The notes below the pieces were generated by a model that saw only the letters and a program-made list of their open reading frames with translations, was not told the DNA's origin and did no database searches. Positions 33,713-45,152 of a stretch of 64,000 nt of DNA are shown in pieces. Position 1 is the stretch's first letter, and each line of letters opens with the position of its first letter. Source of the stretch: Comamonadaceae bacterium (lineage in GTDB: Bacteria > Pseudomonadota > Gammaproteobacteria > Burkholderiales > Burkholderiaceae_C). The position numbers and the translations under genes are program-made. The stretch lies in contig JAIYBB010000007.1 in NCBI GenBank assembly GCA_027488735.1, positions 1 to 64,000 of the forward strand, read 5' to 3'.

Positions 33713-34090
33713 GTTGGCATTGTGCTTGTTTTGACTGGCTGTGGAAATGGGCACCTGGATGATTCAGTTACCTATTGGAAACTGAGTTGAATACATTTAT
33801 TCATTCCTTTAAAACAGGGTCGGATGACCAGTTCGTCAACCAAGGTGCTGCTATCCAAGGCAAACACCGCAGGCCCGGCCGTAGCCGACGTTGTGCCAGC
33901 ATGGAGGCGAGGCCGGGCTGCGGTGGTTGCCAAACCAAATGCGCCAAAACACATGAGCCAATCCAAAAGCGCCAAACCCGATGCACCAAACCACATGCGC
34001 CGCTTTGCAAAAGCTAACTGCACCCAAGACAACCCGACATAGGCCAATCAGGTAGACTGATTACTCAATACTTACACACAGGTGACCCCT
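33713..34090. other. 378-bp gap between molybdoenzyme and M20 genes
   Basis: No conserved gene is recognisable. The left part (33755-33815) is AT-rich, with a short inverted repeat CAGTT...AACTG, and may hold promoters. The centre is GC-rich, and the right part has two imperfect 42-bp-spaced copies of AATGCGCCAAAACACATG (33938 and 33980). Open frames of 72 aa (plus) and 91 aa (minus) cover it; only the plus one is listed separately, with low confidence. The ribosome binding site of the next gene, AGGTGA, is at 34079-34084. Confidence 0.5.
33824..34042 (+). CDS. Possible small basic repeat protein
   Basis: This 72-codon frame starts at ATG with CAGGG about five bases upstream. The product is basic and contains two 14-residue repeats, AKPNAPKHMSQSKS and AKPDAPNHMRRFAK, in phase with a 42-bp DNA repeat. 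A repeat period divisible by three favours coding, but the frame may be chance in GC-rich DNA. I recognise no family. A 91-aa hydrophobic frame on the minus strand (33772-34047) is the competing reading. Confidence 0.25.
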   Translation: MTSSSTKVLLSKANTAGPAVADVVPAWRRGRAAVVAKPNAPKHMSQSKSAKPDAPNHMRRFAKANCTQDNPT

Positions 34091-35281
34091 ATGAAACTGC
34101 TCGACTCGATCGCCACCGAAGCCGCCAGCATTGTTGCCCTGCGCCGCGACATACACGCCCACCCCGAACTCTGTTACGAAGAAAACCGCACCTCCGACCT
34201 GGTGGCCACGCAGCTCATCAGCTGGGGCATAGAAGTGCACCGTGGCATGGGCACCACCGGCGTGGTCGGCATCATCAAAAACGGCACCAGCAAACGCAGC
34301 ATCGGCTTGCGCGCCGACATGGACGCATTGCCCGTGCACGAAGCCAATACCTTCGCCCACGCCAGCCAACACCCCGGCAAGATGCACGCTTGCGGCCACG
34401 ACGGCCACACCGCCATGTTGTTGGCAGCAGCTAAACATTTGTCGCAGCACAAAAATTTTGACGGCACCGTCGTGCTGATTTTTCAACCCGCCGAAGAAGG
34501 CGGCGGCGGCGCGCGTGAAATGATCAAGGACGGTTTGTTCGACAAATTCCCAGTGGACGCAGTCTTCGGTTTGCACAACTGGCCCGGCATGAAAGTCGGG
34601 CAAGCGGCGGTCAGTGCCGGCCCGGTCATGGCGTCGAGCAATGAATTCAAAATCACCATCAAAGGCAAGGGTTGCCACGCGGCGCTGCCGCACAACGGCA
34701 TAGACCCGGTGCCTATCGCGTGTGAAATGGTGCAGGCTTTCCAAACCATTGTGTCGCGCAACATCAAACCGGTGGACGCGGGTGTCATCTCCGTCACCAT
34801 GATCCATGCCGGTGAAGCCACCAATGTCGTGCCCGACAGCTGCGAGCTGCAAGGCACGGTGCGCACCTTCACCGTCGAGATTCTGGACATGATTGAGCGG
34901 CGCATGCGCACCATCGCTGAACACGTCAGCGCCGCGCACGATGCGACATGCACGTTTGAGTTTGTGCGCAATTACCCGCCGACCATCAACCACGCCAAAG
35001 AAGCCGACTTCACCCGCAGCGTGCTCGCCGACATCATCGGTGCCGAGAACGTGCTGGCGCAAGAGCCGACCATGGGCTCGGAAGATTTCTCTTACATGTT
35101 GCTGAAGAAACCCGGCACGTATTTTTTCTTGGCCAATGGCGATGGCCAGCACCGCGAAATGGGCCACGGCGGCGGCCCTTGCACCTTACACAACCCCAGC
35201 TACGACTTCAATGACGACTTGATTCCGCTCGGTGGAACGATCTGGGTGAACATGGTCGAGAAATTTTTAGCCAAGGCTTGA
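34091..35281 (+). CDS. M20-family amidohydrolase (hippurate hydrolase-like)
   Basis: This 396-aa protein matches the M20D amidohydrolases (HipO, IAA-amino acid hydrolases). RRDIHAHPELCYEENRTS opens the domain; MHACGHDGHTAMLL, PAEEGGGGAREMI and FGLHNWPG carry the metal ligands. It would hydrolyse N-acyl amino acids to the acid and free amino acid in the cytoplasm. ATG 34091 has AGGTGA at ideal spacing; a GTG at 34082 in the same frame overlaps that site and is rejected. A short hairpin follows the stop. Confidence 0.92.
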   Translation: MKLLDSIATEAASIVALRRDIHAHPELCYEENRTSDLVATQLISWGIEVHRGMGTTGVVGIIKNGTSKRSIGLRADMDALPVHEANTFAHASQHPGKMHACGHDGHTAMLLAAAKHLSQHKNFDGTVVLIFQPAEEGGGGAREMIKDGLFDKFPVDAVFGLHNWPGMKVGQAAVSAGPVMASSNEFKITIKGKGCHAALPHNGIDPVPIACEMVQAFQTIVSRNIKPVDAGVISVTMIHAGEATNVVPDSCELQGTVRTFTVEILDMIERRMRTIAEHVSAAHDATCTFEFVRNYPPTINHAKEADFTRSVLADIIGAENVLAQEPTMGSEDFSYMLLKKPGTYFFLANGDGQHREMGHGGGPCTLHNPSYDFNDDLIPLGGTIWVNMVEKFLAKA

Positions 35282-35290
35282 AGCAGCAAA

Positions 35291-35311
35291 TCCATGCCTA
35301 CTGAGCATGGA
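35291..35311. terminator. Weak stem-loop between convergent genes
   Basis: TCCATGC (35291-35297) pairs with GCATGGA (35305-35311), just downstream of the M20 gene and facing the TetR gene. It is followed by only a short T-rich stretch, so the terminator call is tentative. Confidence 0.35.
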
Positions 35312-35365
35312 TATGTTTCATCCACTGTAATTAGCGCTTAAATAAAGCCTCCCACCGCTCGGCCA

Positions 35366-36019
35366 TCACCGGGCGCTGTACACCTCTATCAAGGCCTGCA
35401 ACTGGCTCTTGGGTGCCGCGCTCAAATAAGGCAACAGCAAACCCAGCACCTGTTGCGCGCCGCGCAAAGCACTGTGGTCGGCATTGGCGTTTTCCAAGGC
35501 ATGACGCGGGTTTTGTACATACTCATAACTGAGCCACCAGGTCAGCAACACCACCATGTGCGTGGCGCTACTGTGGCGCTCAAAAGGGCTTTGACTGAGC
35601 AAGCCTTGTTCTTGCAAGCCTGAGAGCAAAACTTCAAACGCTTGGTGTTTGCGTTCCAACACCACTTTGACCTGGCCCTCTAGGTGCCGGTTTTTGCTGA
35701 GCAAATCATTCAGGTCGCGGTAGATAAACCGGTGTCGCCAAATCAACTCGAACAAGCTGTGCATGAAAAACCAGGCGTGCTCCATGTCCTGCACGTCGGC
35801 GGCGGCTGGCAGCAACTGGTCCATGTCGTGCAAATACTCGTCAAACAAAGCGTTGACCAGCAGTTCCTTGGCTGGGAAGTGGTAGAACAAATTGCCCGGA
35901 CTGATGCCCATGTCCGAGGCGATCAAGGTGGTGGCCACATTCGGCTCGCCATATCGGTTGAACAAATCCAGCGCGGTCGCGAGGATGCGCTCGGCGGTGC
36001 GGCGCGGCGGCTTTTTCAC
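35366..36019 (-). CDS. TetR/AcrR-family regulator (PhaD-like position)
   Basis: This 217-aa protein has an N-terminal TetR helix-turn-helix (RILATALDLFNRYGEPNVATTLIA, then GISPGNLFYHFPAKELL) and a helical ligand-binding remainder. It starts at GTG, four bases after the stop of the phasin-like gene, so the two form an operon. In pseudomonads the TetR protein PhaD is encoded beside phasin genes; orthology here is inferred from context only. The ligand is unknown. Confidence 0.87.
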   Translation of the reverse strand: MKKPPRRTAERILATALDLFNRYGEPNVATTLIASDMGISPGNLFYHFPAKELLVNALFDEYLHDMDQLLPAAADVQDMEHAWFFMHSLFELIWRHRFIYRDLNDLLSKNRHLEGQVKVVLERKHQAFEVLLSGLQEQGLLSQSPFERHSSATHMVVLLTWWLSYEYVQNPRHALENANADHSALRGAQQVLGLLLPYLSAAPKSQLQALIEVYSAR

Positions 36020-36023
36020 CTGT

Positions 36024-36431
36024 TCAGCCTTTGCCGCCGGATTTCAAGGCTTTCACTTCAGCTTCCAGTGCATCCACACGCGCTTGCAAATCGGCCATGT
36101 CTTGGGCGTTTGGCAAACCCATGCTGTGCAAAGCTTTGGCCACCCGCTCTTCAAAAATACCTTCTAAGCGGTCGAACTGACCGCTGGCGCGTTGACCCAT
36201 GTCGCTGGCCATGGCACTGGCTTTGGCGGCGGCTTCCGTCATCTTGGCCTGCGCCTGCATGGTGGTTTCCTGCAATTTGCTGCCCTCTTTGACCAGCGAA
36301 TCAAACACCTTGCCGCCCTCTTCCTGCGCCTTGGCAAAGGCACCTAAGCCTGCCTGCCAGATTTGCTGGGCCGATTGCTTCATTTGTTCACTCATGTGCT
36401 GGGGGTCAAATTCTGGTGGTTTGCTAGCCAT
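36024..36431 (-). CDS. Phasin-family (polyhydroxyalkanoate granule) protein
   Basis: This 135-aa helical protein contains IWQAGLGAFAKAQEEGGKVFDSLVKEG, the core of PhaF/PhaI-type granule phasins, and ends with a predicted coiled coil (DMADLQARVDALEAEVKAL). Phasins coat polyhydroxyalkanoate granules. GAGGAG sits seven bases before the ATG. No PHA synthase gene lies in the window. The gene diverges from the RfaH-like gene, 87 bp apart. Confidence 0.87.
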   Translation of the reverse strand: MASKPPEFDPQHMSEQMKQSAQQIWQAGLGAFAKAQEEGGKVFDSLVKEGSKLQETTMQAQAKMTEAAAKASAMASDMGQRASGQFDRLEGIFEERVAKALHSMGLPNAQDMADLQARVDALEAEVKALKSGGKG

Positions 36432-36495
36432 GGTAATGCTCCTCGGGTTGGGAAGTTTGTCAAAATAAACGTTTTACAATGGACGAAATCCACCA

Positions 36496-36508
36496 GAGGT
36501 TTTACCTC
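36496..36508 (+). promoter_or_regulatory. Small inverted repeat covering the purine-rich leader of the RfaH-like gene
   Basis: GAGGT TTT ACCTC lies 11 bases before the ATG at 36519. The AGAGG here is the only ribosome-binding-like sequence near the start and would be paired in this hairpin. It is short, so a regulatory role is speculative. Confidence 0.3.
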
Positions 36509-36518
36509 AACCACGCCT

Positions 36519-37004
36519 ATGCATTGGTATGCCATTCATTCAAAGCCTCGCCAGGAAGAACGTGCGTTGGACAACCTGCAAAGGCAGGGGTTTGAAGCAT
36601 GGCTGCCTATGCTCACTCTCGAGAAGGTATTGCGCGGCAAACTGGCTCATGTCACCGAGCCCATGTTCAGTCGCTATTTGTTCATCCGACTCGACACCGA
36701 ACAAACCAATTGGTCACCGATCCGCTCGACTTTGGGCGTGAGCCGTTTGGTCAGTTTTGGCAACCGTCCTGCGGTTGTCTCAGATGATTTGATTCAAGCC
36801 TTGCAAATGGTGCCGCAACGCGCGCCCGAGCGTTTGTTCCAGCCGGGGCAGACGATCAAAATTGTCAGTGGACCGCTTAAAGGCATAGAAGGTATTTTTC
36901 AGCAAGCCGACGGTGAATATCGCGCCATGGTGTTGATTGATTTACTGAACAAGCAGCACCGAGTCACCACGCAGATGCAAGACTTGCGGCCAGCTTCGCT
37001 CTGA
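36519..37004 (+). CDS. rfaH: RfaH-type NusG paralogue
   Basis: This 161-aa protein has the NusG-like N-terminal domain (HWYAIHSKPRQEERALDNLQRQGFEAW in two parts) and a C-terminal KOW-like segment around VSGPLKGIEGIFQ. The N-terminus matches RfaH rather than housekeeping NusG, which is present at 726-1310. RfaH binds polymerase paused at ops sites and promotes full-length transcription of envelope operons. The open frame extends to 36363, but ATG 36519 starts the domain. It lies just ahead of uppS, a NYN gene and rmlBDAC. I saw no canonical ops sequence in the leader after uppS. Confidence 0.85.
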   Translation: MHWYAIHSKPRQEERALDNLQRQGFEAWLPMLTLEKVLRGKLAHVTEPMFSRYLFIRLDTEQTNWSPIRSTLGVSRLVSFGNRPAVVSDDLIQALQMVPQRAPERLFQPGQTIKIVSGPLKGIEGIFQQADGEYRAMVLIDLLNKQHRVTTQMQDLRPASL

Positions 37005-37009
37005 CATTC

Positions 37010-37792
37010 ATGGTTAATTCGCTGCAACACATCGCCATCATCATGGACGGCAACGGACGCTGGGCCAAAAAGCGTTTGATGCCCCGCACTGTGGGCCATG
37101 TGAAAGGCGCAGCCAATGTTCGCCACATGGTCAAGGCCTGCGCAGATGCCGGCATCACTTATCTGACCTTGTTTGCATTCAGCTCAGAAAACTGGCGTCG
37201 CCCAGCCGAGGAAATCAGCGCATTGATGGGCTTGTTTTTGCAATACCTTGAAAATGAAGTGGCTGAAATGAAAGCCGCGGGCATACGTTTGCGTGTGATT
37301 GGTGACCGCAGTGCGTTTGCGCCCCTGCTGCAGTCGCGCATTGACCAAGCCGAGCAGGAAACCGCGCACAACAACCGTTTGCATCTAACGATTGCTGCCA
37401 ACTACGGTGGCCAATGGGACGTGTTGAATGCCATGCGCGCCTGGCAAGTGGCGCACCCGGGCAAAAACTTGCAGGATTTAGACGCCAGCGGTTTGGCCGC
37501 GCACCTGAGCACCGCAGACTTGCCCGACCCGGAGTTGTTGATCAGAACCGGAGGCGAGTCCCGCATCAGCAATTTTTTGCTGTGGCAAACCGCTTACACG
37601 GAGTTGTATTTCACCGATGTGTATTGGCCCGATTTTGACGCAGCTGCCCTGAAAAAAGCCACGCAATGGTTTGAACACAGGGTCCGCCGCTTTGGCCGCA
37701 CCGATGATCAAGTAGCTGCCAACCCTGAATCACCGGCCACACCAGGCCTAGGCACAACCCCGCTGTCACCCCCCCATTTCAATATCAGCTAA
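37010..37792 (+). CDS. uppS: Isoprenyl transferase (undecaprenyl-diphosphate synthase family)
   Basis: This 260-aa protein has the cis-prenyltransferase motifs: the catalytic Asp in AIIMDGNGRWAKKR, AFSSENWRRP, and LLIRTGGESRISNFLLWQ followed by ELYFTDVYWPDF. It makes the C55 lipid carrier used for peptidoglycan and O-antigen. It starts five bases after the RfaH-like stop. In most proteobacteria uppS lies in frr-uppS-cdsA; here it sits in a polysaccharide context, so it may be a second copy. The Pro-rich C-terminal tail (about 240-260) is an extension. Confidence 0.92.
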   Translation: MVNSLQHIAIIMDGNGRWAKKRLMPRTVGHVKGAANVRHMVKACADAGITYLTLFAFSSENWRRPAEEISALMGLFLQYLENEVAEMKAAGIRLRVIGDRSAFAPLLQSRIDQAEQETAHNNRLHLTIAANYGGQWDVLNAMRAWQVAHPGKNLQDLDASGLAAHLSTADLPDPELLIRTGGESRISNFLLWQTAYTELYFTDVYWPDFDAAALKKATQWFEHRVRRFGRTDDQVAANPESPATPGLGTTPLSPPHFNIS

Positions 37793-37902
37793 TATTCAGC
37801 ATGCAGGCTTAGTCATTAGTTTCGGGTGCCTGCAATGCCCAACCGACGGAACGCCCACTGTCACATTTCCCCATTAGCTATCTCAGCAACAGGTAACCAT
37901 AA
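37793..37902 (+). promoter_or_regulatory. Leader with stem-loop before the NYN-rmlBDAC genes
   Basis: TGCAGGC (37802-37808) pairs with GCCTGCA (37828-37834), extended by GCAT/ATGC around a bulge, leaving a loop of about 19 bases. There is no T-run, so it is not a typical terminator. It separates uppS from the following five genes and may be a pause or regulatory site. No GGCGGTAGC (ops) sequence is present. Confidence 0.4.
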
Positions 37903-38766
37903 ATGAAGAACGAGCCTCGCCCACCCCACCACCGCAAAGAACATGCCCCTGCACGATCAGGCCGTTGCATGGCATTGATCGACAGCAATTACATGGCCTG
38001 GCTGTTGCGCCAATCGAGCGACGCAGCTGCCGAACCCGAAACATACAACCGAATGGCTTTGATTCCTTCGTTGGCACAAGCACTCAAAGGCGCAGGCTTA
38101 GGCTTGGACATTCAACGCGTGTATTGGTACACCGACAACCCCGATACCCAATTCCCGCATGACCAAATCGTTCGCCAATTGGATGCTGCGGGTGGTGAAC
38201 CCGGCGATGTGGTCTTTCAAGCCATGTCTTCTGACATTGCGCGCTTGGCACAACACCATGCCTGTGAACATTTGCTGGTGGCCAGTGATGACGACCGCTT
38301 GACCGCTGCCATCGATGACGCGCAATTGCATGGCATCAGCGTGTATTTGTTGGCTGACGAGTCGGCCCGCCACATGGACCAATTGGTGACCGAAGACCCG
38401 GCGTGGTGTCGCTTGCTCGCGCAGGCCGATCGGCGTGTGTTGTTGTTACCGCAAGCCGCGCGTGAACTCACCGCGTCGCCTCGTGCGCCTGCTGCCCCGG
38501 TCGCGCCCCAAGACCCCGAAGTCGTACGTACCAAATTGTTGGAAGTTGTCACCCAATGGTGGGACGATGAGCCCGAGGATTTGCGCGAAGACTTGCGTGA
38601 TGAACTGCGTGGCAGCCACGGTATTCCCCAAGAAGTCGATCGCCACATGTTGCTGCGTGTACGCCGCGCCTTAGACCGTCCACTGAGCTTTCCAGAGAAA
38701 AAAATACTGCGCGAAATGGTGCGCACCACAGTGCTGGGTATCACCGAAGAAAGTATGCCCGTATGA
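37903..38766 (+). CDS. NYN-domain protein (LabA/DUF88-like)
   Basis: This 287-aa protein has a PIN-like NYN domain (about 20-185). Acidic residues are visible in [11 protein letters not shown] and in [21 protein letters not shown], where the nuclease active site would be. The C-terminal 90 residues are highly acidic ([17 protein letters not shown]) and end in a helical segment that may be a separate RNA- or protein-binding domain. NYN proteins are often RNases. Its stop overlaps rmlB (ATGA), so it is translationally coupled to dTDP-rhamnose synthesis. The target is unknown. Confidence 0.8.
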
Positions 38767-39824
38767 CCCTGTTGGTGACCGGCGGTGCTGGCTTCATTGG
38801 CAGTAATTTTGTGCACCACTGGCTCGCCGAGCATGATGAGTTGTTGGTCAACCTGGATAAGTTGACCTACGCGGGGAACCTGGGCAATTTGCAATCTTTG
38901 GCCCAGGACCAGCGCCATGTGTTTGTGCAAGGCGATATCGCTGACACTGCGTTGGTGGCGCAGCTTTTACAGCAATATCAGCCCCGCGCGGTGCTGCATT
39001 TCGCGGCTGAGTCGCATGTTGATCGTTCTATCCACGGGCCGCTCGATTTCATACACACCAATGTGGTGGGCACTTGCCAATTGCTGGAATCGGTACGTGC
39101 TTATTGGGCGGCATTGCCCGCAGATCAACAACAGAGTTTTCGTTTTCTGCATGTGAGCACCGATGAGGTTTATGGCAGCCTTGCGCCCGATGCGCCGGCT
39201 TTCACAGAAACCCATCCCTATGCGCCCAACAGCCCTTATGCGGCCAGCAAAGCGGCCTCAGACCACTTGGTGCGTGCTTGGCACCACACCTATGGCTTGC
39301 CCGTGCTCACCACCCACTGCAGCAATAACTATGGCCCGTACCACTTCCCGGAAAAGCTCATTCCCTTGGTGATTCACCATGCGCTGTCAGGCAAACCATT
39401 GCCTGTGTATGGCGACGGCATGCAGGTGCGTGATTGGTTGTTTGTGCAAGACCACTGCCGTGCGATCGACAGGGTGTTGCAGGCGGGAACACCCGGTGAA
39501 ACCTACAACATCGGTGGGTGGAATGAAAAGCCCAACATTGAAGTGGTGAAAACACTATGCAGTTTGTTGGATGAATTGCAACCACGCGCTGACGGCCAGT
39601 CTTATGCAGCGCAAATCACGTTTGTGAAAGACCGCGCGGGGCACGACAGGCGCTATGCCATTGACGCTGGAAAAATCAACGACAGCTTGGGCTGGCAGCC
39701 GGTTGAAACCTTTGAAACCGGTTTGCGCAAAACCGTTCGGTGGTACTTGGACCATAGCGATTGGGTCAGCAGTGTGACCAGCGGTGCTTATCGCCAATGG
39801 GTTGACCTGCACTATGGCGGCTGA
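38763..39824 (+). CDS. rfbB: dTDP-glucose 4,6-dehydratase
   Basis: This 353-aa extended short-chain dehydrogenase has the NAD motif [15 protein letters not shown], the STDEVYGSL segment, and the catalytic [10 protein letters not shown] (YxxxK). It converts dTDP-glucose to dTDP-4-keto-6-deoxyglucose, the second step of dTDP-L-rhamnose synthesis. ATG 38763 overlaps the NYN stop. All four rml genes follow in the order B-D-A-C. Confidence 0.96.
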
Positions 39825-40722
39825 ACCGGTTCTGTTGCTAGGCGCTGCAGGACAGCTTGGCCACGCGCTTTTTCAAGCACTTCAGCAGGCGGGCCAGCCG
39901 GTGGTTGCTTGGACCCGTGCCGATATCGACTTCAGTCATTTGTCCGAACTCAAGCAGCGTGTGGCCCAACTCAAACCACGATGGATTTTCAATGCGGCGG
40001 CTTATACCGCTGTTGACAAGGCGCAAACCGAGCCCGAACAGGCGCATTTAGTGAATGCCCTTATACCTGCCATGCTCGCTGAGTACGCCAAGGCCAATGG
40101 CGCGGCGCTGATGCATTTCTCTAGCGACTATGTGTTCAACGGCCGTGCAACCCGCCCCTACCTTGAAACCGATGCAACCGATCCCTTGTCGGTGTATGGA
40201 CAAAGCAAGCGTGATGGTGATGCGGCCGTTCAAGCCAGCGGGGCAAGGTATGTGGTGTTGAGAAGCTCTTGGGTGGTGGCGGCCCATGGGCAAAATTTTT
40301 TGAAAACCATGTTGCGTTTGGCCGCTGAGCGGGATCAACTGAACGTGGTGGCAGACCAGACCGGCGTGCCCACTGCTGCCACATGGCTGGCCGAGTTGGC
40401 GCTGCGTGCCATGTCCTTGGCTGAGCGGGAAGGTTTCAACGGTTTATTTCATGCCACGCCCCGCGGTCAAACCACTTGGCATGGCTATGCCCAATATGTG
40501 TTGACGCAAGCGGCCAGCCGGGGCTGGACATTCAAAGCGACGGCTGATCAGGTACACCCGATCACTACCGCACAATACCCGTTGCCAGCACAGCGGCCAG
40601 CATATGGCTTGCTTGACAGCAGCTTGCTGGCGCGCAGTTTGCAATGCGATTGGCCCGATTGGCAAGTGGGTGTCAATCAAGTGATTGCACAACTCTCTAA
40701 GCAACGGCCTGCAAAGGTTTGA
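39814..40722 (+). CDS. rfbD: dTDP-4-dehydrorhamnose reductase
   Basis: This 302-aa protein has the nucleotide motif [22 protein letters not shown], and the catalytic YGQSKRDGD. It makes dTDP-L-rhamnose from dTDP-4-dehydrorhamnose, the last step. I chose ATG 39814 (overlapping the rfbB end by 11 bases) because [13 protein letters not shown] places the nucleotide motif at the N-terminus; an ATG at 39784 would lie deeper inside rfbB. Confidence 0.95.
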
Positions 40723-40752
40723 CGCCTCCTTCACTATCAGCCAGGATTTGAC

Positions 40753-41631
40753 ATGACCCCTGTACAAAGAAAAGGTATTTTGCTCGCCGGTGGTTCCGGC
40801 ACCCGGCTGTATCCGCTGACGCTGGCGGTGAGTAAGCAATTGATGCCGGTCTACGACAAGCCCTTGGTGTATTACCCGCTGAGTACCCTGATGTTGAGTG
40901 GTATTCGCGAAGTGTTGATCATTTCAACACCGCAAGACACACCGCGTTTCGCAGAATTACTGGGGGATGGGTCGCAATGGGGCATGCACATTCAATATGC
41001 TGTGCAGCCCAAGCCGGAGGGGCTGGCTCAAGCCTTTTTGATTGGGCGCGATTTTGTCAATCACCACCATAGCGCATTGGTGCTGGGGGACAATATTTTT
41101 TATGGCCACGATCTGGTCAAGCAGTTGCAGCTCTCAAACTTGCGCGAGCAAGGCGCCACGGTGTTTGCTTACCATGTGGTCGATCCAGAGCGTTATGGCG
41201 TCGTGACGTTTGATGCGCAACAACGCGCGGTTCATATTGAAGAAAAACCCAAACAGCCACAATCTAATTTTGCAGTGACCGGTTTGTATTTTTATGACCC
41301 ACAGGTTTGCGACATTGCAGCGCAAATTCGTCCGTCTGCACGGGGCGAATTGGAAATCACCGACGTTAACCGCCATTACCTGGCGCAACAGCAGTTGCAC
41401 GTGGAAACCATGGGGCGCGGTTATGCCTGGCTTGACGCGGGCACGCATGAGGGACTGATGGAAGCCGCCACATTCATTGCAACATTGCAAAAACGGCAAG
41501 GTTTGATGGTTGCCTGCCCCGAGGAAATCGCCTATTCACAGGGTTGGATCACCGCTGCAGATTTAGAAAAATTGGCGCAACCCTATAAAAATACCGGTTA
41601 TGGTCAATATTTATTGCGTTTATTGGGTTAA
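40753..41631 (+). CDS. rfbA: Glucose-1-phosphate thymidylyltransferase
   Basis: This 292-aa nucleotidyltransferase has the signature [18 protein letters not shown], the sugar-binding [15 protein letters not shown], and [11 protein letters not shown] with the catalytic Asp. It makes dTDP-glucose from glucose-1-phosphate and dTTP, the first step of dTDP-rhamnose synthesis. It begins 30 bp after rfbD in the same operon. Confidence 0.96.
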
Positions 41632-41636
41632 TTCAA

Positions 41637-42185
41637 ATGCCATATACAGTGACACCCACCCAATTGCCGCAAGTTTTATTACTTCAACCCCTGGTATTTG
41701 CAGACGAACGTGGTTTTTTCTTTGAAAGTTTTAACCAGCGGGAATTTAACAAAGCCACGGGGCTGGACCTGGTATTTGTTCAGGATAACCACAGTAAATC
41801 AAGGCATGGGGTATTGCGGGGTTTGCATTTTCAGCGTCAGTTTCCCCAGGGCAAGTTAATCAGGGTGGCGCAAGGCCAAATATTTGATGTGGCGGTAGAT
41901 ATTCGCCCCGACTCGCCGCAATATGGAAAATGGACGGGTCATATGTTGGACAGTGAATCTCACCAGCAATTATGGATACCTGCGGGCTTTGCCCATGGTT
42001 TTTTGGTGCTGAGTGATACCGCAGAAGTCATTTATAAAACCACCGACTACTGGGTGGCCAGCGATGAAGATGCGGTGATTTGGAATGACCGAGATATTGC
42101 CATCGACTGGCCTGTGCATGCACTGAAAACCCAGCCGCTGCTGTCGCCCAAGGACGCAGCGGCCAAGCCGTTTAAGCAGCCTTGA
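41637..42185 (+). CDS. rfbC: dTDP-4-dehydrorhamnose 3,5-epimerase
   Basis: This 182-aa cupin-fold epimerase has FFFESFNQREF, the catalytic His in GVLRGLHFQ, and IPAGFAHGFLVLSDTAEVIYK. It epimerises carbons 3 and 5 of dTDP-4-keto-6-deoxyglucose, the third step of the pathway. It completes rmlBDAC; no glycosyltransferase genes follow. Its last 14 bases overlap the end of the convergent hns gene. Confidence 0.96.
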   Translation: MPYTVTPTQLPQVLLLQPLVFADERGFFFESFNQREFNKATGLDLVFVQDNHSKSRHGVLRGLHFQRQFPQGKLIRVAQGQIFDVAVDIRPDSPQYGKWTGHMLDSESHQQLWIPAGFAHGFLVLSDTAEVIYKTTDYWVASDEDAVIWNDRDIAIDWPVHALKTQPLLSPKDAAAKPFKQP

Positions 42186-42555
42186 TTTCTGCGCTGGCGA
42201 GTTGCCCCGCCGTTTGCAGGGCCTGAACCCATGCAGGTGTGCGGCCACGGCCAGTCCAAGTTTGGGCGGGGTTGGCTGGGTCACGGTATTTCGGGGCAAC
42301 TTTGCGGCCTGCCGTGGCACGCTTGGCTTTCGGGGCTTTTGCCGAGGCTGATTTGGCGGCACTGGCTTTGCCTTTTTTGCCGCCTAAAGCTGCAGCGATA
42401 TCTTCAGCAGTTAACCCGGAGGCGTGGGCAATCTGCACAATTTGCGCCAAAGCCTTGTCATGGGTGCGCGACATCAAACGCTGTTCTTCTTTTTCCAATT
42501 TGATTCTGGCGGCACGGACTTTTTCTAATTGGGCAACCGGACTTAAACGGGTCAT
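42172..42555 (-). CDS. H-NS family nucleoid-associated protein
   Basis: This 127-aa protein has an N-terminal coiled-coil oligomerisation part (QLEKVRAARIKLEKEEQRL), a Lys/Ala-rich linker, and the C-terminal AT-hook-like DNA-binding domain YRDPANPAQTWTGRGRTPAW. It resembles the short H-NS proteins of Burkholderiales. AGGAG precedes ATG 42555, which decides the start over an in-frame ATG at 42585. H-NS silences AT-rich, often horizontally acquired genes. It converges on, and overlaps, rfbC. Confidence 0.92.
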   Translation of the reverse strand: MTRLSPVAQLEKVRAARIKLEKEEQRLMSRTHDKALAQIVQIAHASGLTAEDIAAALGGKKGKASAAKSASAKAPKAKRATAGRKVAPKYRDPANPAQTWTGRGRTPAWVQALQTAGQLASAEIKAA

Positions 42556-42758
42556 ATTAATCTCCTGATAAAAAATATATTCCAACCCATATTATTAACT
42601 ATTTAAATCATTTTTAAGCCAATATTTAATTGTTTATAAAGGATGGTAAAAATAATATTAATTAATCTCAGTTTCAAGCGAGCCAGTGTCGTCATTCAAG
42701 CAGCCTTATTGCCTCCACGGGCTTGGTGCACAATGCCATCCATCATCTACGCAGACCC
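42556..42758. promoter_or_regulatory. AT-rich divergent region between hns and argB
   Basis: These 203 bp include the most AT-rich stretch in the window (about 42565-42670), with A- and T-tracts such as AAAAAATATATT and TTTAATTGTTTATAAA. They hold the promoters of both divergent genes and make a natural H-NS target, so autoregulation is plausible. I could not fix exact -10/-35 boxes. Confidence 0.45.
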
Positions 42759-43658
42759 ATGAACACTTCAGACCCATCTACCCCGCAATCGCACCGCGAC
42801 CAGGCTGAGATCTTGGCGCGGGCCCTACCCTACATTCGCCAATTCCATGGCAAGACCATCGTCATCAAGTACGGCGGCAACGCCATGACAGACCCTGCGT
42901 TGCAAGCTGATTTCGCTGCCGATGTGGTGCTGTTGAAATTGGTCGGCATGCATCCCATCGTTGTTCATGGCGGCGGCCCGCAAATTGAAAATGCCTTGCA
43001 ACGCTTGGGGAAAAAGGGCGAATTCATCCAAGGCATGCGTGTCACCGATGAGGAAACCATGGAAGTGGTCGAGTGGGTGTTGGCCGGAGAAGTGCAGCAA
43101 GATATCGTGGGCTTGATCAACCAAGCCGGCGGCAAAGCCGTGGGTTTGACGGGGCGCGATGGCGGCATGATCCGCGCGCAAAAATTGAAGATGTTGGATA
43201 ACCAAGACCCCACGATTGAGCATGATGTCGGGCAGGTGGGTGACATCACGTCCATCGATCCGTCTTTGCTCCAGGCATTGCAAGACGATGCATTTATTCC
43301 CGTGGTCAGTCCTATCGGCTTTGGCGTGCACAATGAAAGCTACAACATCAATGCGGATGTCGTGGCCTCCAAACTCGCTACTGTGTTGAAGGCTGAAAAA
43401 CTGGTGTTGTTGACCAATACCGCCGGGGTACTCGATAAAACCGGCCAGTTGCTGACCAACCTGAGCGCCCGACAAATCGACGCCTTGTTTGCAGATGGCA
43501 CCATCAGTGGCGGTATGCTGCCCAAAATCAGCGGCGCACTTGAAGCCGCCAAGAGCGGTGTCAAAGCCGTGCACATCATCGATGGCAGAGTGCCACATGT
43601 GTTGTTACTTGAAATTCTGACTGACCAAGCTTTTGGCACCATGATCCGTTCGCACTGA
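42759..43658 (+). CDS. argB: Acetylglutamate kinase
   Basis: This 299-aa protein has the amino-acid kinase motifs [25 protein letters not shown], and [13 protein letters not shown]. It phosphorylates N-acetylglutamate in the second step of arginine synthesis. I chose ATG 42759; the upstream in-frame TTG at 42723 lies in the promoter region. It is followed after 20 bp by slmA, as in other Burkholderiales. Confidence 0.96.
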
Positions 43659-43678
43659 CCACCCAGGAGGACCGTCCT

Positions 43679-44296
43679 ATGGCTGATGAGCAACCCGCAG
43701 CAACTGTCGCCGACGTCACCGCACGCAAGCGGCCAAAACCGGGCGAGCGGCGCATTCAAATACTGCAGGCCCTCGCAGCCATGCTGGAGCAACCTGGTTC
43801 GGAGCGGGTCACCACCGCGGCCTTGGCTGCCAAACTTGATGTCAGCGAAGCCGCGCTTTACCGGCATTTCGCCAGCAAGGCGCAAATGTTCGAAGGTTTG
43901 ATTGAATTCATTGAAACCAGCGTGTTCAGTTTGCTCAATCAAATCGCCCAAGGGCCGCATGAAGCACCTGACAAACTGCGTCGTATGCTCACCGTATTGC
44001 TGCAGTTTGCCGAGCGCAACCCGGGCATGGCCCGGGTCATGGTCGGCGATGCCTTGGTGTTTGAAAACGACCGCTTGCACCAGCGCATGAATTTGTTTTT
44101 TGACAAAGTCGAAGCCAGTTTGCGACAGGTGTTGCGAGAGGCCGCCAGTTCCTCAGCCACTCCCACGGTGGACGCTCAGGCGCAGGCATCGGTGGCGATG
44201 GCGTTTGCGGTGGGGCGGTTGCACCGCTTCTCTCGTTCGGGCTACAAACGCTCGCCGTTGGAGCATTTGGATGCCAGCCTGAATTTCCTGATTTAA
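43679..44296 (+). CDS. slmA: Nucleoid occlusion factor SlmA (TetR family)
   Basis: This 205-aa TetR-family protein closely follows SlmA: RRIQILQALAAMLEQP, then VTTAALAAKLDVSEAALYRHFASKAQMFEGLIEFIE, and the later FAERNPGMARVMVGDALVFENDRL. SlmA binds DNA and FtsZ and blocks division over the nucleoid. AGGAGG precedes the ATG. Its place next to argB is the usual one in this order. Confidence 0.88.
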   Translation: MADEQPAATVADVTARKRPKPGERRIQILQALAAMLEQPGSERVTTAALAAKLDVSEAALYRHFASKAQMFEGLIEFIETSVFSLLNQIAQGPHEAPDKLRRMLTVLLQFAERNPGMARVMVGDALVFENDRLHQRMNLFFDKVEASLRQVLREAASSSATPTVDAQAQASVAMAFAVGRLHRFSRSGYKRSPLEHLDASLNFLI

Positions 44297-44299
44297 AAA

Positions 44300-44367
44300 C
44301 ACAGTGACGCTGTGAAAAATTGCATGCTGGTGCAAGCTGTGCTTGTTGACAATAAATCATCTTTATT
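44300..44367. promoter_or_regulatory. Three inverted repeats upstream of the SDR-FAH operon
   Basis: Within 68 bp lie CACAG-tgacg-CTGTG (44300-44314), TTGCA-tgctgg-TGCAA (44320-44335) and AATAAA-tcatc-TTTATT (44351-44367). The first may terminate slmA transcription; the other two could be operators for the following catabolic genes. The repeats are seen directly; the roles are inferred. Confidence 0.4.
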
Positions 44368-44393
44368 TCTTTGACAGACTTGGACACCCACAG

Positions 44394-45152
44394 ATGAACC
44401 AATTAGATATGCAAGGCCGCCATGCGGTAGTCACCGGCGGCGCCAGTGGTTTGGGCTTGGCGATTGTGCATCGCTTGTTGCATTCAGGCGCACGCGTCAC
44501 CATCTGGGACTACGACCAGAAAGGCATGGACAAAGCAGTGTCTGAACTGCGTCAACACTGGCCCCAAGCCACCATCGAATCTGTGCAAGTTAATTTGACA
44601 CAACACGCGCAAGTGGTGGATGCGGTCAAGAAAACCATTGCGTTGGCGGATGTGGATGCACTGGTCAACAGCGCCGGCATCAGCGGCCCGAATATGAAGA
44701 GCTGGGATTACCCGCTGGACGATTGGCACAAGGTGTTTGACATCAATGTCAACGGCTTGTACTACTGTTGCCGTGAAATGGTGCCGCACATGAAAGCGCG
44801 CAACAAGGGACGCATCGTCAATATTGCATCCGTCGCCGGTAAAGACGGCAACCCGAATGCCAGTGCTTACAGTGCCAGCAAAGCAGCGGTGATTGCCTTG
44901 ACCAAATCCATTGGCAAAGAGTTGGCTGACACGGCGATTTGCGTCAACTGTGTCACCCCTGCGGCTGTCAAGACGCCGATCTTCGATCAGCTCACGCCCG
45001 AGCATATACAGTTCATGCTGAGCAAAATTCCGATGGGACGTTTTGGTACACCCGATGAAATCGCCGCCATGGTGGCCTGGTTGTGCACCGATGATTGTTC
45101 TTTTTCCACCGGAGCCACCTTTGATTTGTCAGGTGGCAGATCCACGTATTGA
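44394..45152 (+). CDS. Short-chain dehydrogenase (possible 2-keto-3-deoxy-sugar-acid dehydrogenase)
   Basis: This 252-aa classical SDR has TGGASGLGLAI, the NSAG motif, Ser in NIASVAGKDG, and the catalytic YSASKAAV. It ends FDLSGGRSTY. Paired with the downstream FAH-family hydrolase, it resembles the 2-keto-3-deoxy-L-fuconate (or rhamnonate) 4-dehydrogenase step of the non-phosphorylating deoxy-sugar pathway. The substrate is inferred from this pairing. ATG 44394 was chosen over 44343 because the latter adds residues before the Rossmann fold. Confidence 0.82.
   Translation: MNQLDMQGRHAVVTGGASGLGLAIVHRLLHSGARVTIWDYDQKGMDKAVSELRQHWPQATIESVQVNLTQHAQVVDAVKKTIALADVDALVNSAGISGPNMKSWDYPLDDWHKVFDINVNGLYYCCREMVPHMKARNKGRIVNIASVAGKDGNPNASAYSASKAAVIALTKSIGKELADTAICVNCVTPAAVKTPIFDQLTPEHIQFMLSKIPMGRFGTPDEIAAMVAWLCTDDCSFSTGATFDLSGGRSTY

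What the first reader, a model, noticed from the sequence alone, without database searches (positions are those of the whole stretch)
36519..42585. RfaH-UppS-NYN-RmlBDAC block closed by a convergent H-NS gene
A NusG paralogue, a lipid-carrier synthase, a putative NYN nuclease and the full dTDP-rhamnose pathway lie in one co-directional series, and the NYN stop overlaps rmlB by ATGA. No glycosyltransferases follow. The order suggests a self-contained regulatory unit for envelope polysaccharide: antitermination by RfaH, RNA cleavage or turnover by NYN, and silencing by H-NS from the 3' side. The gene order and overlaps are seen; the regulatory circuit is inference. I know of no described role for a NYN protein in this setting.
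Basis: partly seen in the sequence, partly recalled or inferred. Interest (0 to 1): 0.6.

Follow-up and report, generated by a model that had tools for sequence, protein, structure and literature searches.

The report
Remnant of Limnohabitans O-antigen locus
The gene block is real, but it looks like what is left where a large sugar-coat gene cluster is missing from between two groups of landmark genes in a freshwater bacterium, and its most unusual feature is that the cell's only gene for an essential lipid carrier enzyme sits beside a coat-gene regulator instead of in its usual place.

Summary
In detail: rfaH, uppS, an NYN-fold gene and rmlBDAC run in one direction and meet a convergent hns gene. 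NYN and rmlB share a 4-nt overlap in 18 of 18 window-clade genomes, so NYN-rml co-transcription is likely there. The self-contained regulatory unit is mostly not supported. In eight genomes of the genus (named relatives are Limnohabitans) where the whole uppS-to-NYN interval was read, 15-47 kb with rmlBDAC lies between them; in the window clade uppS abuts NYN. RfaH's recognition signal (ops) is not in the block. It lies 49-56 bp before uppS in 7 of 60 genus genomes, though rfaH itself is close by in only two of the seven; a one-mismatch ops precedes a polysaccharide cluster on another contig of this genome. hns is the genome's only H-NS-family match, so hardly a dedicated silencer. None of 19 NYN loci outside the genus lies by rml, uppS or argB. 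The stronger finding: uppS is this genome's only UppS, belongs to a lineage separate from the housekeeping frr-uppS-cdsA type, and is missing from that site. RfaH genes beside uppS and H-NS are already in print, with their meaning left open.

The parts
36519..37004 (+). rfaH, NusG-paralogue antiterminator, 161 aa; has E48, R138 and K10 of E. coli RfaH, but not R73
   Evidence: NCBIfam TIGR01955 170.7 bits over cut-off 144.5; PDB relatives 5ond, 2oug; residue table
37010..37792 (+). uppS, undecaprenyl diphosphate synthase; only PF01255 match in the genome; not of the frr-uppS-cdsA lineage
   Evidence: TIGR00055; single copy; frr followed directly by cdsA; tree
37793..37902 (+). uppS-NYN gap with blocks conserved in 18 window-clade genomes (AAGATMRGCTAATAT running over the uppS stop, CATTAGTTTCG in part); candidate promoter or operator, unproven
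   Evidence: no unusual RNA fold against shuffles; no promoter found by the consensus scan
37903..38766 (+). NYN-fold protein, 287 aa; NYN domain about residues 18-190, four-helix C-terminal domain about 203-280 of unknown kind
   Evidence: predicted fold matches MARF1 NYN Z 14.9 and 14.4 and VPA0982 (2qip) Z 14.6, next 7.6; D27, D129 and D130 invariant in 47 rows, D/E at 99 and 111
38763..39824 (+). rmlB, dTDP-glucose 4,6-dehydratase; start overlaps the NYN stop by 4 nt
   Evidence: TIGR01181; overlap in 18 of 18 window-clade genomes
39817..40722 (+). rmlD, dTDP-4-dehydrorhamnose reductase
   Evidence: TIGR01214
40753..41631 (+). rmlA, glucose-1-phosphate thymidylyltransferase
   Evidence: TIGR01207
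41637..42185 (+). rmlC, dTDP-4-dehydrorhamnose 3,5-epimerase; overlaps the hns 3' end by 14 nt
   Evidence: TIGR01221
42172..42555 (-). H-NS-family gene, the only PF00816 match in the genome
   Evidence: PF00816; start codon read
42759..43658 (+). argB, right-hand landmark; the first reference gene 3' of NYN in 35 of 63 genus genomes
   Evidence: TIGR00761; neighbour table
36024..36431 (-). phasin gene, left of rfaH; within 2.5 kb of uppS in 16 of 30 genus rows with at least 2 kb to look at
   Evidence: PF05597

Best explanation
The block is what remains of a surface-polysaccharide (O-antigen type) locus in Limnohabitans whose variable inside is absent here. Shown: in eight genus genomes read from uppS to NYN, 15-47 kb with rmlBDAC lies between them, followed by NYN and argB; in the window clade and its sisters uppS abuts NYN, and in the window clade rml genes and hns lie between NYN and argB. 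Inferred: RfaH works in the ordinary way, joining RNA polymerase at an ops site in the leader of a polysaccharide operon. In one clade the ops is just before uppS, so uppS plus the cluster is the likely operon. In the window genome the likely target lies in trans on contig C13. uppS serves the whole cell, since no other copy was found. The rml genes supply dTDP-rhamnose, translated in coupling with NYN. NYN is probably a nuclease of wider or unrelated function that came to sit in the rml operon; the single H-NS is a general nucleoid protein.
For: Whole intervals read in G080, G150, G152, G155, G175, G176, G219 and G222, rmlB, D, A and C found in each. Pfam of ten proteins from two of them (G080, G152): GT2, GT1, DegT, Polysacc_synt_2, Wzy_C, sugar transferase, and Wzz below its cut-off; two without a family. 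5' neighbour of NYN: uppS in 31 of 64, a divergent galE-like gene (by eye) in 30, no reference gene in 3; 3' neighbour: argB 35, hns-argB 1, rmlB 27, unread 1. ops at 49-56 bp before uppS in 7 of 60 genomes (5 exact, 2 with one mismatch), 0 of 18 in the window clade; six of the seven form one clade in the UppS tree (SH-aLRT 97; the seventh was not in the tree). One-mismatch ops at G000:C13:45233-45244, about 150 bp before a UDP-glucose dehydrogenase gene that opens a polysaccharide cluster. Single uppS and single hns. NYN loci in other genera lack rml, uppS and argB, 0 of 19.
Against: The left edge is not uniform: rfaH lies upstream of uppS in 33 of 52 genus rows with at least 600 bp to look at, phasin in 16 of 30; four of the seven genomes with ops before uppS show no rfaH in the 2.0-3.8 kb read before it, and in a fifth it is 1.6 kb away. 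NYN-rmlB adjacency is not a one-off: 27 of 63 genomes, with the 4-nt overlap also in G184 and G189 outside the window clade. The direction of events is unsure: at least 3 changes of 3' neighbour on a quick NYN tree with many open forks. The exact site GGCGGTAGCGTS is less common in the genus than its reversed control, so the one-mismatch C13 site rests on position alone. 19 of the 27 cluster-group genomes were not read from uppS to NYN.
Confidence: 0.65

Rival explanations
1. One reading: RfaH antiterminates rfaH-uppS-NYN-rml, NYN cleaves the transcript, and H-NS silences it from the 3' side.
For: Co-direction and tight spacing; conserved NYN-rmlB overlap, 18 of 18; hns after rml in 13 of 13 window-clade genomes read that far; RfaH as a counter-silencer of H-NS is shown in E. 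coli (PMC9765446, passages).
Against: No ops within one mismatch in the block or before uppS in 18 window-clade genomes; hns is the only family match in the genome; sister genomes keep uppS-NYN without rml after it; conserved blocks in the uppS-NYN gap hint at a separate start for NYN-rml.
Confidence: 0.1
2. NYN is a dedicated partner of the dTDP-rhamnose operon within this genus, for example tuning rml mRNA, and the argB arrangements are later losses of rml.
For: NYN-rmlB adjacency in 27 of 63 genomes, including all nine sampled genomes that lie outside the window clade, its sister group and the cluster group; 4-nt overlap in 20 of 27 as computed; G161 keeps hns between NYN and argB without rml, as expected if rml was deleted there.
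Against: 36 of 63 genomes have argB, or hns then argB, after NYN; 0 of 19 loci in other genera have rml by NYN; one of the 27 has a gap of 1.4 kb (G168).
Confidence: 0.2
3. The locus is an ordinary chance neighbourhood with no functional meaning for any of the pairs.
For: Neighbours of rfaH are known to be diverse (PMC7593976, passages); NYN changes partners within the genus; the left edge varies.
Against: rfaH lies within 250 bp upstream of uppS in 32 of 52 rows and an ops lies at a fixed 49-56 bp before uppS in 7 genomes; the NYN-rmlB overlap is kept at about 79-94 % NYN identity.
Confidence: 0.1

Closest known systems
RfaH cluster CL6 neighbourhoods (PMC7593976; repeated in PMC7819879)
   Different: The passages seen mention neither the NYN gene, the loss of uppS from frr-cdsA, an ops before uppS nor the absent cluster; whether this RfaH falls in CL6 was not tested
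RfaH/ops control of polysaccharide operons (E. coli wzx, rfa, kps)
   Same: RfaH family member; the consensus GGCGGTAGNNTG (letters recalled) before uppS in seven genus genomes, at least six of them one clade
   Different: In the window block no ops is present; the likely target is on another contig with one mismatch
NYN ribonucleases (MARF1, CRISPR-associated B. fragilis NYN, VPA0982)
   Same: Predicted fold and acidic residues
   Different: Below the Pfam NYN cut-off; own helical C-terminal domain; the conserved acids at 99 and 111 stand 31 and 19 residues before D130, against 23-26 between the last two active-site residues of the three proteins in PMC11346440 (passages)
Housekeeping uppS of pyrH-frr-uppS-cdsA-dxr
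   Same: Same enzyme family
   Different: The 20 sequences taken from loci holding frr group apart from the 30 genus rows and five others (SH-aLRT 96)

Membership tests
RfaH | sequence over the RfaH equivalog cut-off | tested here: met
   170.7 bits, cut-off 144.5
RfaH | E48-R138 interdomain pair (role recalled, not from a call) | tested here: met
   E and R in 16 of 17 genus rows, G000 among them; lost in G151
RfaH target operon | ops element in the leader, for this block | tested here: not met
   hence the block is not filed as an RfaH target
RfaH target operon | ops element at the C13 polysaccharide cluster of the same genome | tested here: inconclusive
   GGCGGTAGCGTC, one mismatch, between genes, about 150 bp before the first gene
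NYN ribonuclease | Pfam NYN gathering score | tested here: not met
   13.4 bits, cut-off 24.2; 16 of 47 relatives match at E up to 1, best E 0.0011, while an unrelated family, GGDEF_2, reaches 5.2e-05 in one; so 'NYN fold', not a Pfam NYN member
NYN ribonuclease | NYN/PIN-like fold | tested here: met
   5yaa Z 14.9 (140 aligned, rmsd 2.9), 2qip Z 14.6 (145, 4.4), 6fdl Z 14.4 (141, 3.0); next entry 7.6. Foldseek alone ranked an unrelated chain (8j2x, TM-score 0.21) first and 2qip second
NYN ribonuclease | three active-site aspartates | tested here: inconclusive
   D27 and D130 invariant, D/E at 99 (46 of 47, one gap) and 111 (47 of 47); geometry not examined
NYN ribonuclease | RNA cleavage | not testable with these tools
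   needs purified protein
UppS | sequence over the uppS equivalog cut-off | tested here: met
   281.3 bits, cut-off 109.55
housekeeping frr-uppS-cdsA UppS | position between frr and cdsA and same lineage | tested here: not met
dTDP-L-rhamnose pathway | RmlA, B, C and D all over their cut-offs | tested here: met
H-NS | C-terminal domain PF00816 | tested here: met
   51 bits, cut-off 25.6; the E. coli-type NCBIfam models stay below their cut-offs

The most novel reading that the evidence does not exclude
Across Limnohabitans the housekeeping uppS has been replaced by a copy from the polysaccharide locus, and RfaH, through an ops site before uppS in one clade, ties supply of the cell-wall lipid carrier to polysaccharide transcription; where the cluster left the locus, as in the window clade, rfaH-uppS stayed behind as a pair and an NYN nuclease became built into the rhamnose operon.
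Probability: 0.27. Interest if true: 0.65.

Novelty: new variant of a known kind. Interest (0 to 1): 0.45.

Why it matters
Two papers note RfaH relatives encoded beside uppS and H-NS; one adds that the functional significance of such associations needs future study (PMC7819879, passages). Here a concrete answer becomes testable: in one Limnohabitans clade an ops site stands just before uppS and a polysaccharide cluster, with rfaH about 200 bp upstream of uppS in two of those genomes, and uppS is the only full copy in 63 of the 64 genus genomes that yielded one. If right, an essential enzyme gene has passed from the housekeeping set to a variable surface-sugar locus and, in one clade, under a specialised antiterminator, which would couple wall and coat carrier supply. 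Named Limnohabitans strains with deposited genomes exist, so a test looks practical. It is also a warning that a tidy row of genes may be the scar of a missing cluster.

Tried and rejected
A dedicated H-NS silencer: rejected as such because hns is the only PF00816 match in the genome. RfaH on this block: not supported for want of ops. ops as a genome-wide marker: the exact site GGCGGTAGCGTS occurs in 49 of 84 genus genomes, 83 sites by my count of the list, fewer than its reversed control; in 20 regions chosen from that list, 17 sites lie inside a mechanically called ORF, and the other three are the G193 uppS leader, the own C13 leader and one site in G168 between genes of the other strand. 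In the own genome the looser consensus at no mismatch has 3 sites, fewer than its control of 8, none of them on C13 or C4. ops-like sites in G080 at two mismatches are at chance level, 18 found against 17.3 expected; in the own C13 stretch 5 against 8.0; only the sites in the leaders were taken. An RNA structure in the uppS-NYN gap: z-scores -0.74 to 0.22 in five sequences, and the stem is lost in G216 and G204. Rfam: no match in 34000-45000. Promoter and terminator scans: no more than shuffles. C-terminal domain of NYN: best Z 5.8 (GatB tail, 59 aligned, rmsd 2.2), too low to count; no kind assigned. PDB sequence search with the NYN profile: weak hits only, best E 0.0022, 2lr0. Literature, listings only: Limnohabitans with O-antigen, 2 papers, neither on this subject by title; Limnohabitans genomes with polysaccharide, 12 of 99 listed; NYN with O-antigen or rmlB, 12 of 716 listed, none with the term 'NYN domain'; uppS with rfaH and H-NS, one unrelated paper; a second UppS in O-antigen clusters, 11 listed, nothing on displacement by title. 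No paper was read whole.

Rows dropped or unsure: G228 (31-residue NYN fragment) was left out; G206 has no readable 3' neighbour; G188 has uppS at its contig start and its value is invalid, G179 has only 43 bp, G193 appears twice and G168 gives two rows; the G187, G168 and G177 rows are not reliable junctions. The UppS tree used 25 of the 28 non-genus loci plus two fetched later, less five (L241-L245) left out: that is 23 of 28 plus two; those five all hold frr. The 28 were the best matches to the window UppS, a biased draw from 150 genomes.
Full report
What is there. The exception is the NYN gene, 37903-38766: its Pfam NYN score is 13.4 bits against a cut-off of 24.2, and RraB scores a little better, also below its cut-off. 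A structure predicted from 47 sequences (mean pLDDT 80) nevertheless matches the NYN domains of MARF1 (Z 14.9 and 14.4) and the Vibrio protein VPA0982 (Z 14.6), with the next entry at 7.6; Foldseek alone ranked VPA0982 second, behind an unrelated chain with a TM-score of 0.21. D27, D129 and D130 are invariant in 47 rows; position 111 is D or E in all and 99 in 46. PMC11346440 (passages) names three active-site aspartates in NYN proteins and shows one to be needed for RNA cleavage; whether the geometry fits here was not examined. The C-terminal 85 residues form four predicted helices with no clear match.

Where the window comes from. The named records with close NYN genes are Limnohabitans and unnamed Burkholderiales or Comamonadaceae MAGs (the best 80 of 103 are kept). 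The genus sample has 84 genomes; calling the genus Limnohabitans is an inference from those titles. The NYN gene is found in 65 of 84 genus genomes, 34 of 40 of the good ones, but in 14 of 150 of the family sample, two of these from the genus itself.

The block as the edges of a locus. I read the neighbours of NYN in 64 genus genomes, leaving out one fragment. Upstream lies uppS in 31, a divergent galE-like gene (named by eye) in 30 and no reference gene in 3. Downstream lies argB in 35, hns then argB in 1, rmlB in 27; 1 is unread. In nine genomes with galE before NYN, uppS is on the same contig, 15-51 kb away. Eight of these intervals (15-47 kb) were fetched whole, and rmlB, D, A and C lie in each. 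In two of them (G080, G152) ten proteins were given to Pfam: glycosyltransferases, a DegT aminotransferase, Polysacc_synt_2, O-antigen ligase (Wzy_C) and a sugar transferase were named, a Wzz match fell below its cut-off and two had no family. The right edge, NYN-argB followed by TetR and FAH-type genes, is alike in these genomes. The left edge varies: rfaH lies upstream of uppS in 33 of 52 rows with at least 600 bp to look at, 32 of them within 250 bp; phasin lies within 2.5 kb in 16 of 30 rows with at least 2 kb; G169 and G215 have another gene there.

The window clade. It holds 19 genomes in the NYN tree (SH-aLRT 100). uppS abuts NYN in all 19. In the nine sister genomes uppS-NYN is followed by argB without rml, in one (G161) with hns between. 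The NYN tree gives at least 3 changes of the 3' neighbour and 4 of the 5' neighbour, but it is a quick tree with 24 of 66 branches open, so the order of events is not settled; hns without rml in G161 suggests that rml was lost there.

The NYN-rmlB junction. The 4-nt overlap is present in 18 of 18 window-clade genomes that could be read and in two others. It does not extend beyond the genus: of 19 distinct loci in other genera (12 from the family sample, 7 more from named records), none has rml, uppS or argB in the flanks held, up to about 9 kb a side but much shorter in some; one (G073) has an RfaH gene 1.4 kb away on the other strand.

RfaH and ops. The window has one ops within one mismatch, inside argB, against 3.4 expected. 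Among the 60 genus genomes whose sequence before uppS could be read (59 with 300 bp, one with 43), an ops within one mismatch occurs in 7, always 49-56 bp before the uppS start, five of them exact; none of 18 window-clade genomes has one. The chance rate would give about 0.5 in all these stretches together. Six of the seven form one clade in the UppS tree (SH-aLRT 97); the seventh, G224, was not in it. Of the seven, G080 and G150 have rfaH about 200 bp upstream of uppS, G155 has it 1.6 kb upstream, and G175, G176, G193 and G224 show none in the 2.0-3.8 kb read. In the window's own genome a one-mismatch ops (GGCGGTAGCGTC) lies between genes, about 150 bp before a UDP-glucose dehydrogenase gene that opens a polysaccharide cluster on contig C13. 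In an E. coli strain the sites that gave RfaH signal were those in leaders (PMC9765446, passages), so position is the right criterion, but with one mismatch this site remains a candidate; over the genus the exact site is no commoner than its control. The RfaH residues compared are nearly the same in the three ops-uppS genomes in the table and in the others.

uppS. It is the only PF01255 match in this genome, and frr is followed directly by cdsA. In the genus 64 of 84 genomes have a match; 63 have one full copy, one (G168) has two, and two have a weak extra match below cut-off. None of the genus uppS loci held shows frr or cdsA beside it. Outside the genus, 23 of the 28 best-matching uppS loci hold frr and 5 do not. 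In a tree of 55 sequences the 20 from loci holding frr stand on one side (SH-aLRT 96) and the 30 genus rows with those 5 on the other. The loci of two of the 5, G022 and G110, hold polysaccharide-type genes by eye, and both genomes also have an frr-cdsA copy. This fits replacement of the housekeeping copy in the genus by a polysaccharide-locus copy. Five genus genomes (G180, G182, G201, G208, G229) carry uppS at yet another place, with no rfaH in the stretch held.

H-NS. The hns gene is the only PF00816 match in this genome. RfaH counters H-NS in E. coli (PMC9765446, passages), so the two could still interact; nothing here shows it.

What is known. PMC7593976 reports that neighbours of RfaH cluster CL6 encode UppS and H-NS (passages), and PMC7819879 repeats this and leaves the significance to future studies (passages). 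The company of rfaH, uppS and hns is thus in print; the NYN-rml part, the absent cluster, the ops before uppS and the loss of uppS from frr-cdsA did not appear in the listings.

Verdict. The more interesting matter is the move of uppS into the RfaH neighbourhood.

Noticed in passing
window 37793-37902: Blocks in the uppS-NYN gap are conserved in 18 window-clade genomes (AAGATMRGCTAATAT over the uppS stop, CATTA..TT), with a GCAGGC..GCCTGC inverted repeat that two genomes lack; possible promoter or operator.
   Followed up: partly
L138, L153, L196, L189: Public MAG records named Rickettsia typhi, Bordetella parapertussis and Akkermansia muciniphila carry this Limnohabitans locus and are probably mislabelled.
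   Followed up: no
L036:1652-5259: dxr is followed directly by bamA in this genome, without the gene that stands between them in L252 and looks like rseP; whether rseP lies elsewhere was not tested.
   Followed up: no
L127, L140, L144: Three window-clade loci lack rmlA and rmlC between rmlD and hns; where these genes are was not tested.
   Followed up: no
L082:8753-9457, L083:5100-5726, L089:5238-5882: A YiiX-type C92 amidase gene stands near NYN in three genus genomes, in two of them between uppS and NYN.
   Followed up: no
L303:13328-14897: Two adjacent genes that look like a PIN-type protein and an XRE regulator (by eye, no family search) lie just before the C13 polysaccharide cluster, on the other strand.
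   Followed up: no
L123 (G151): The RfaH of G151 has lost both residues of the E48-R138 pair, V and C instead.
   Followed up: no
L090, L091 (G168): This genome has two rfaH-uppS copies on two contigs, both beside phasin and TetR genes; its contamination is given as 6 %, so the second may be foreign.
   Followed up: no
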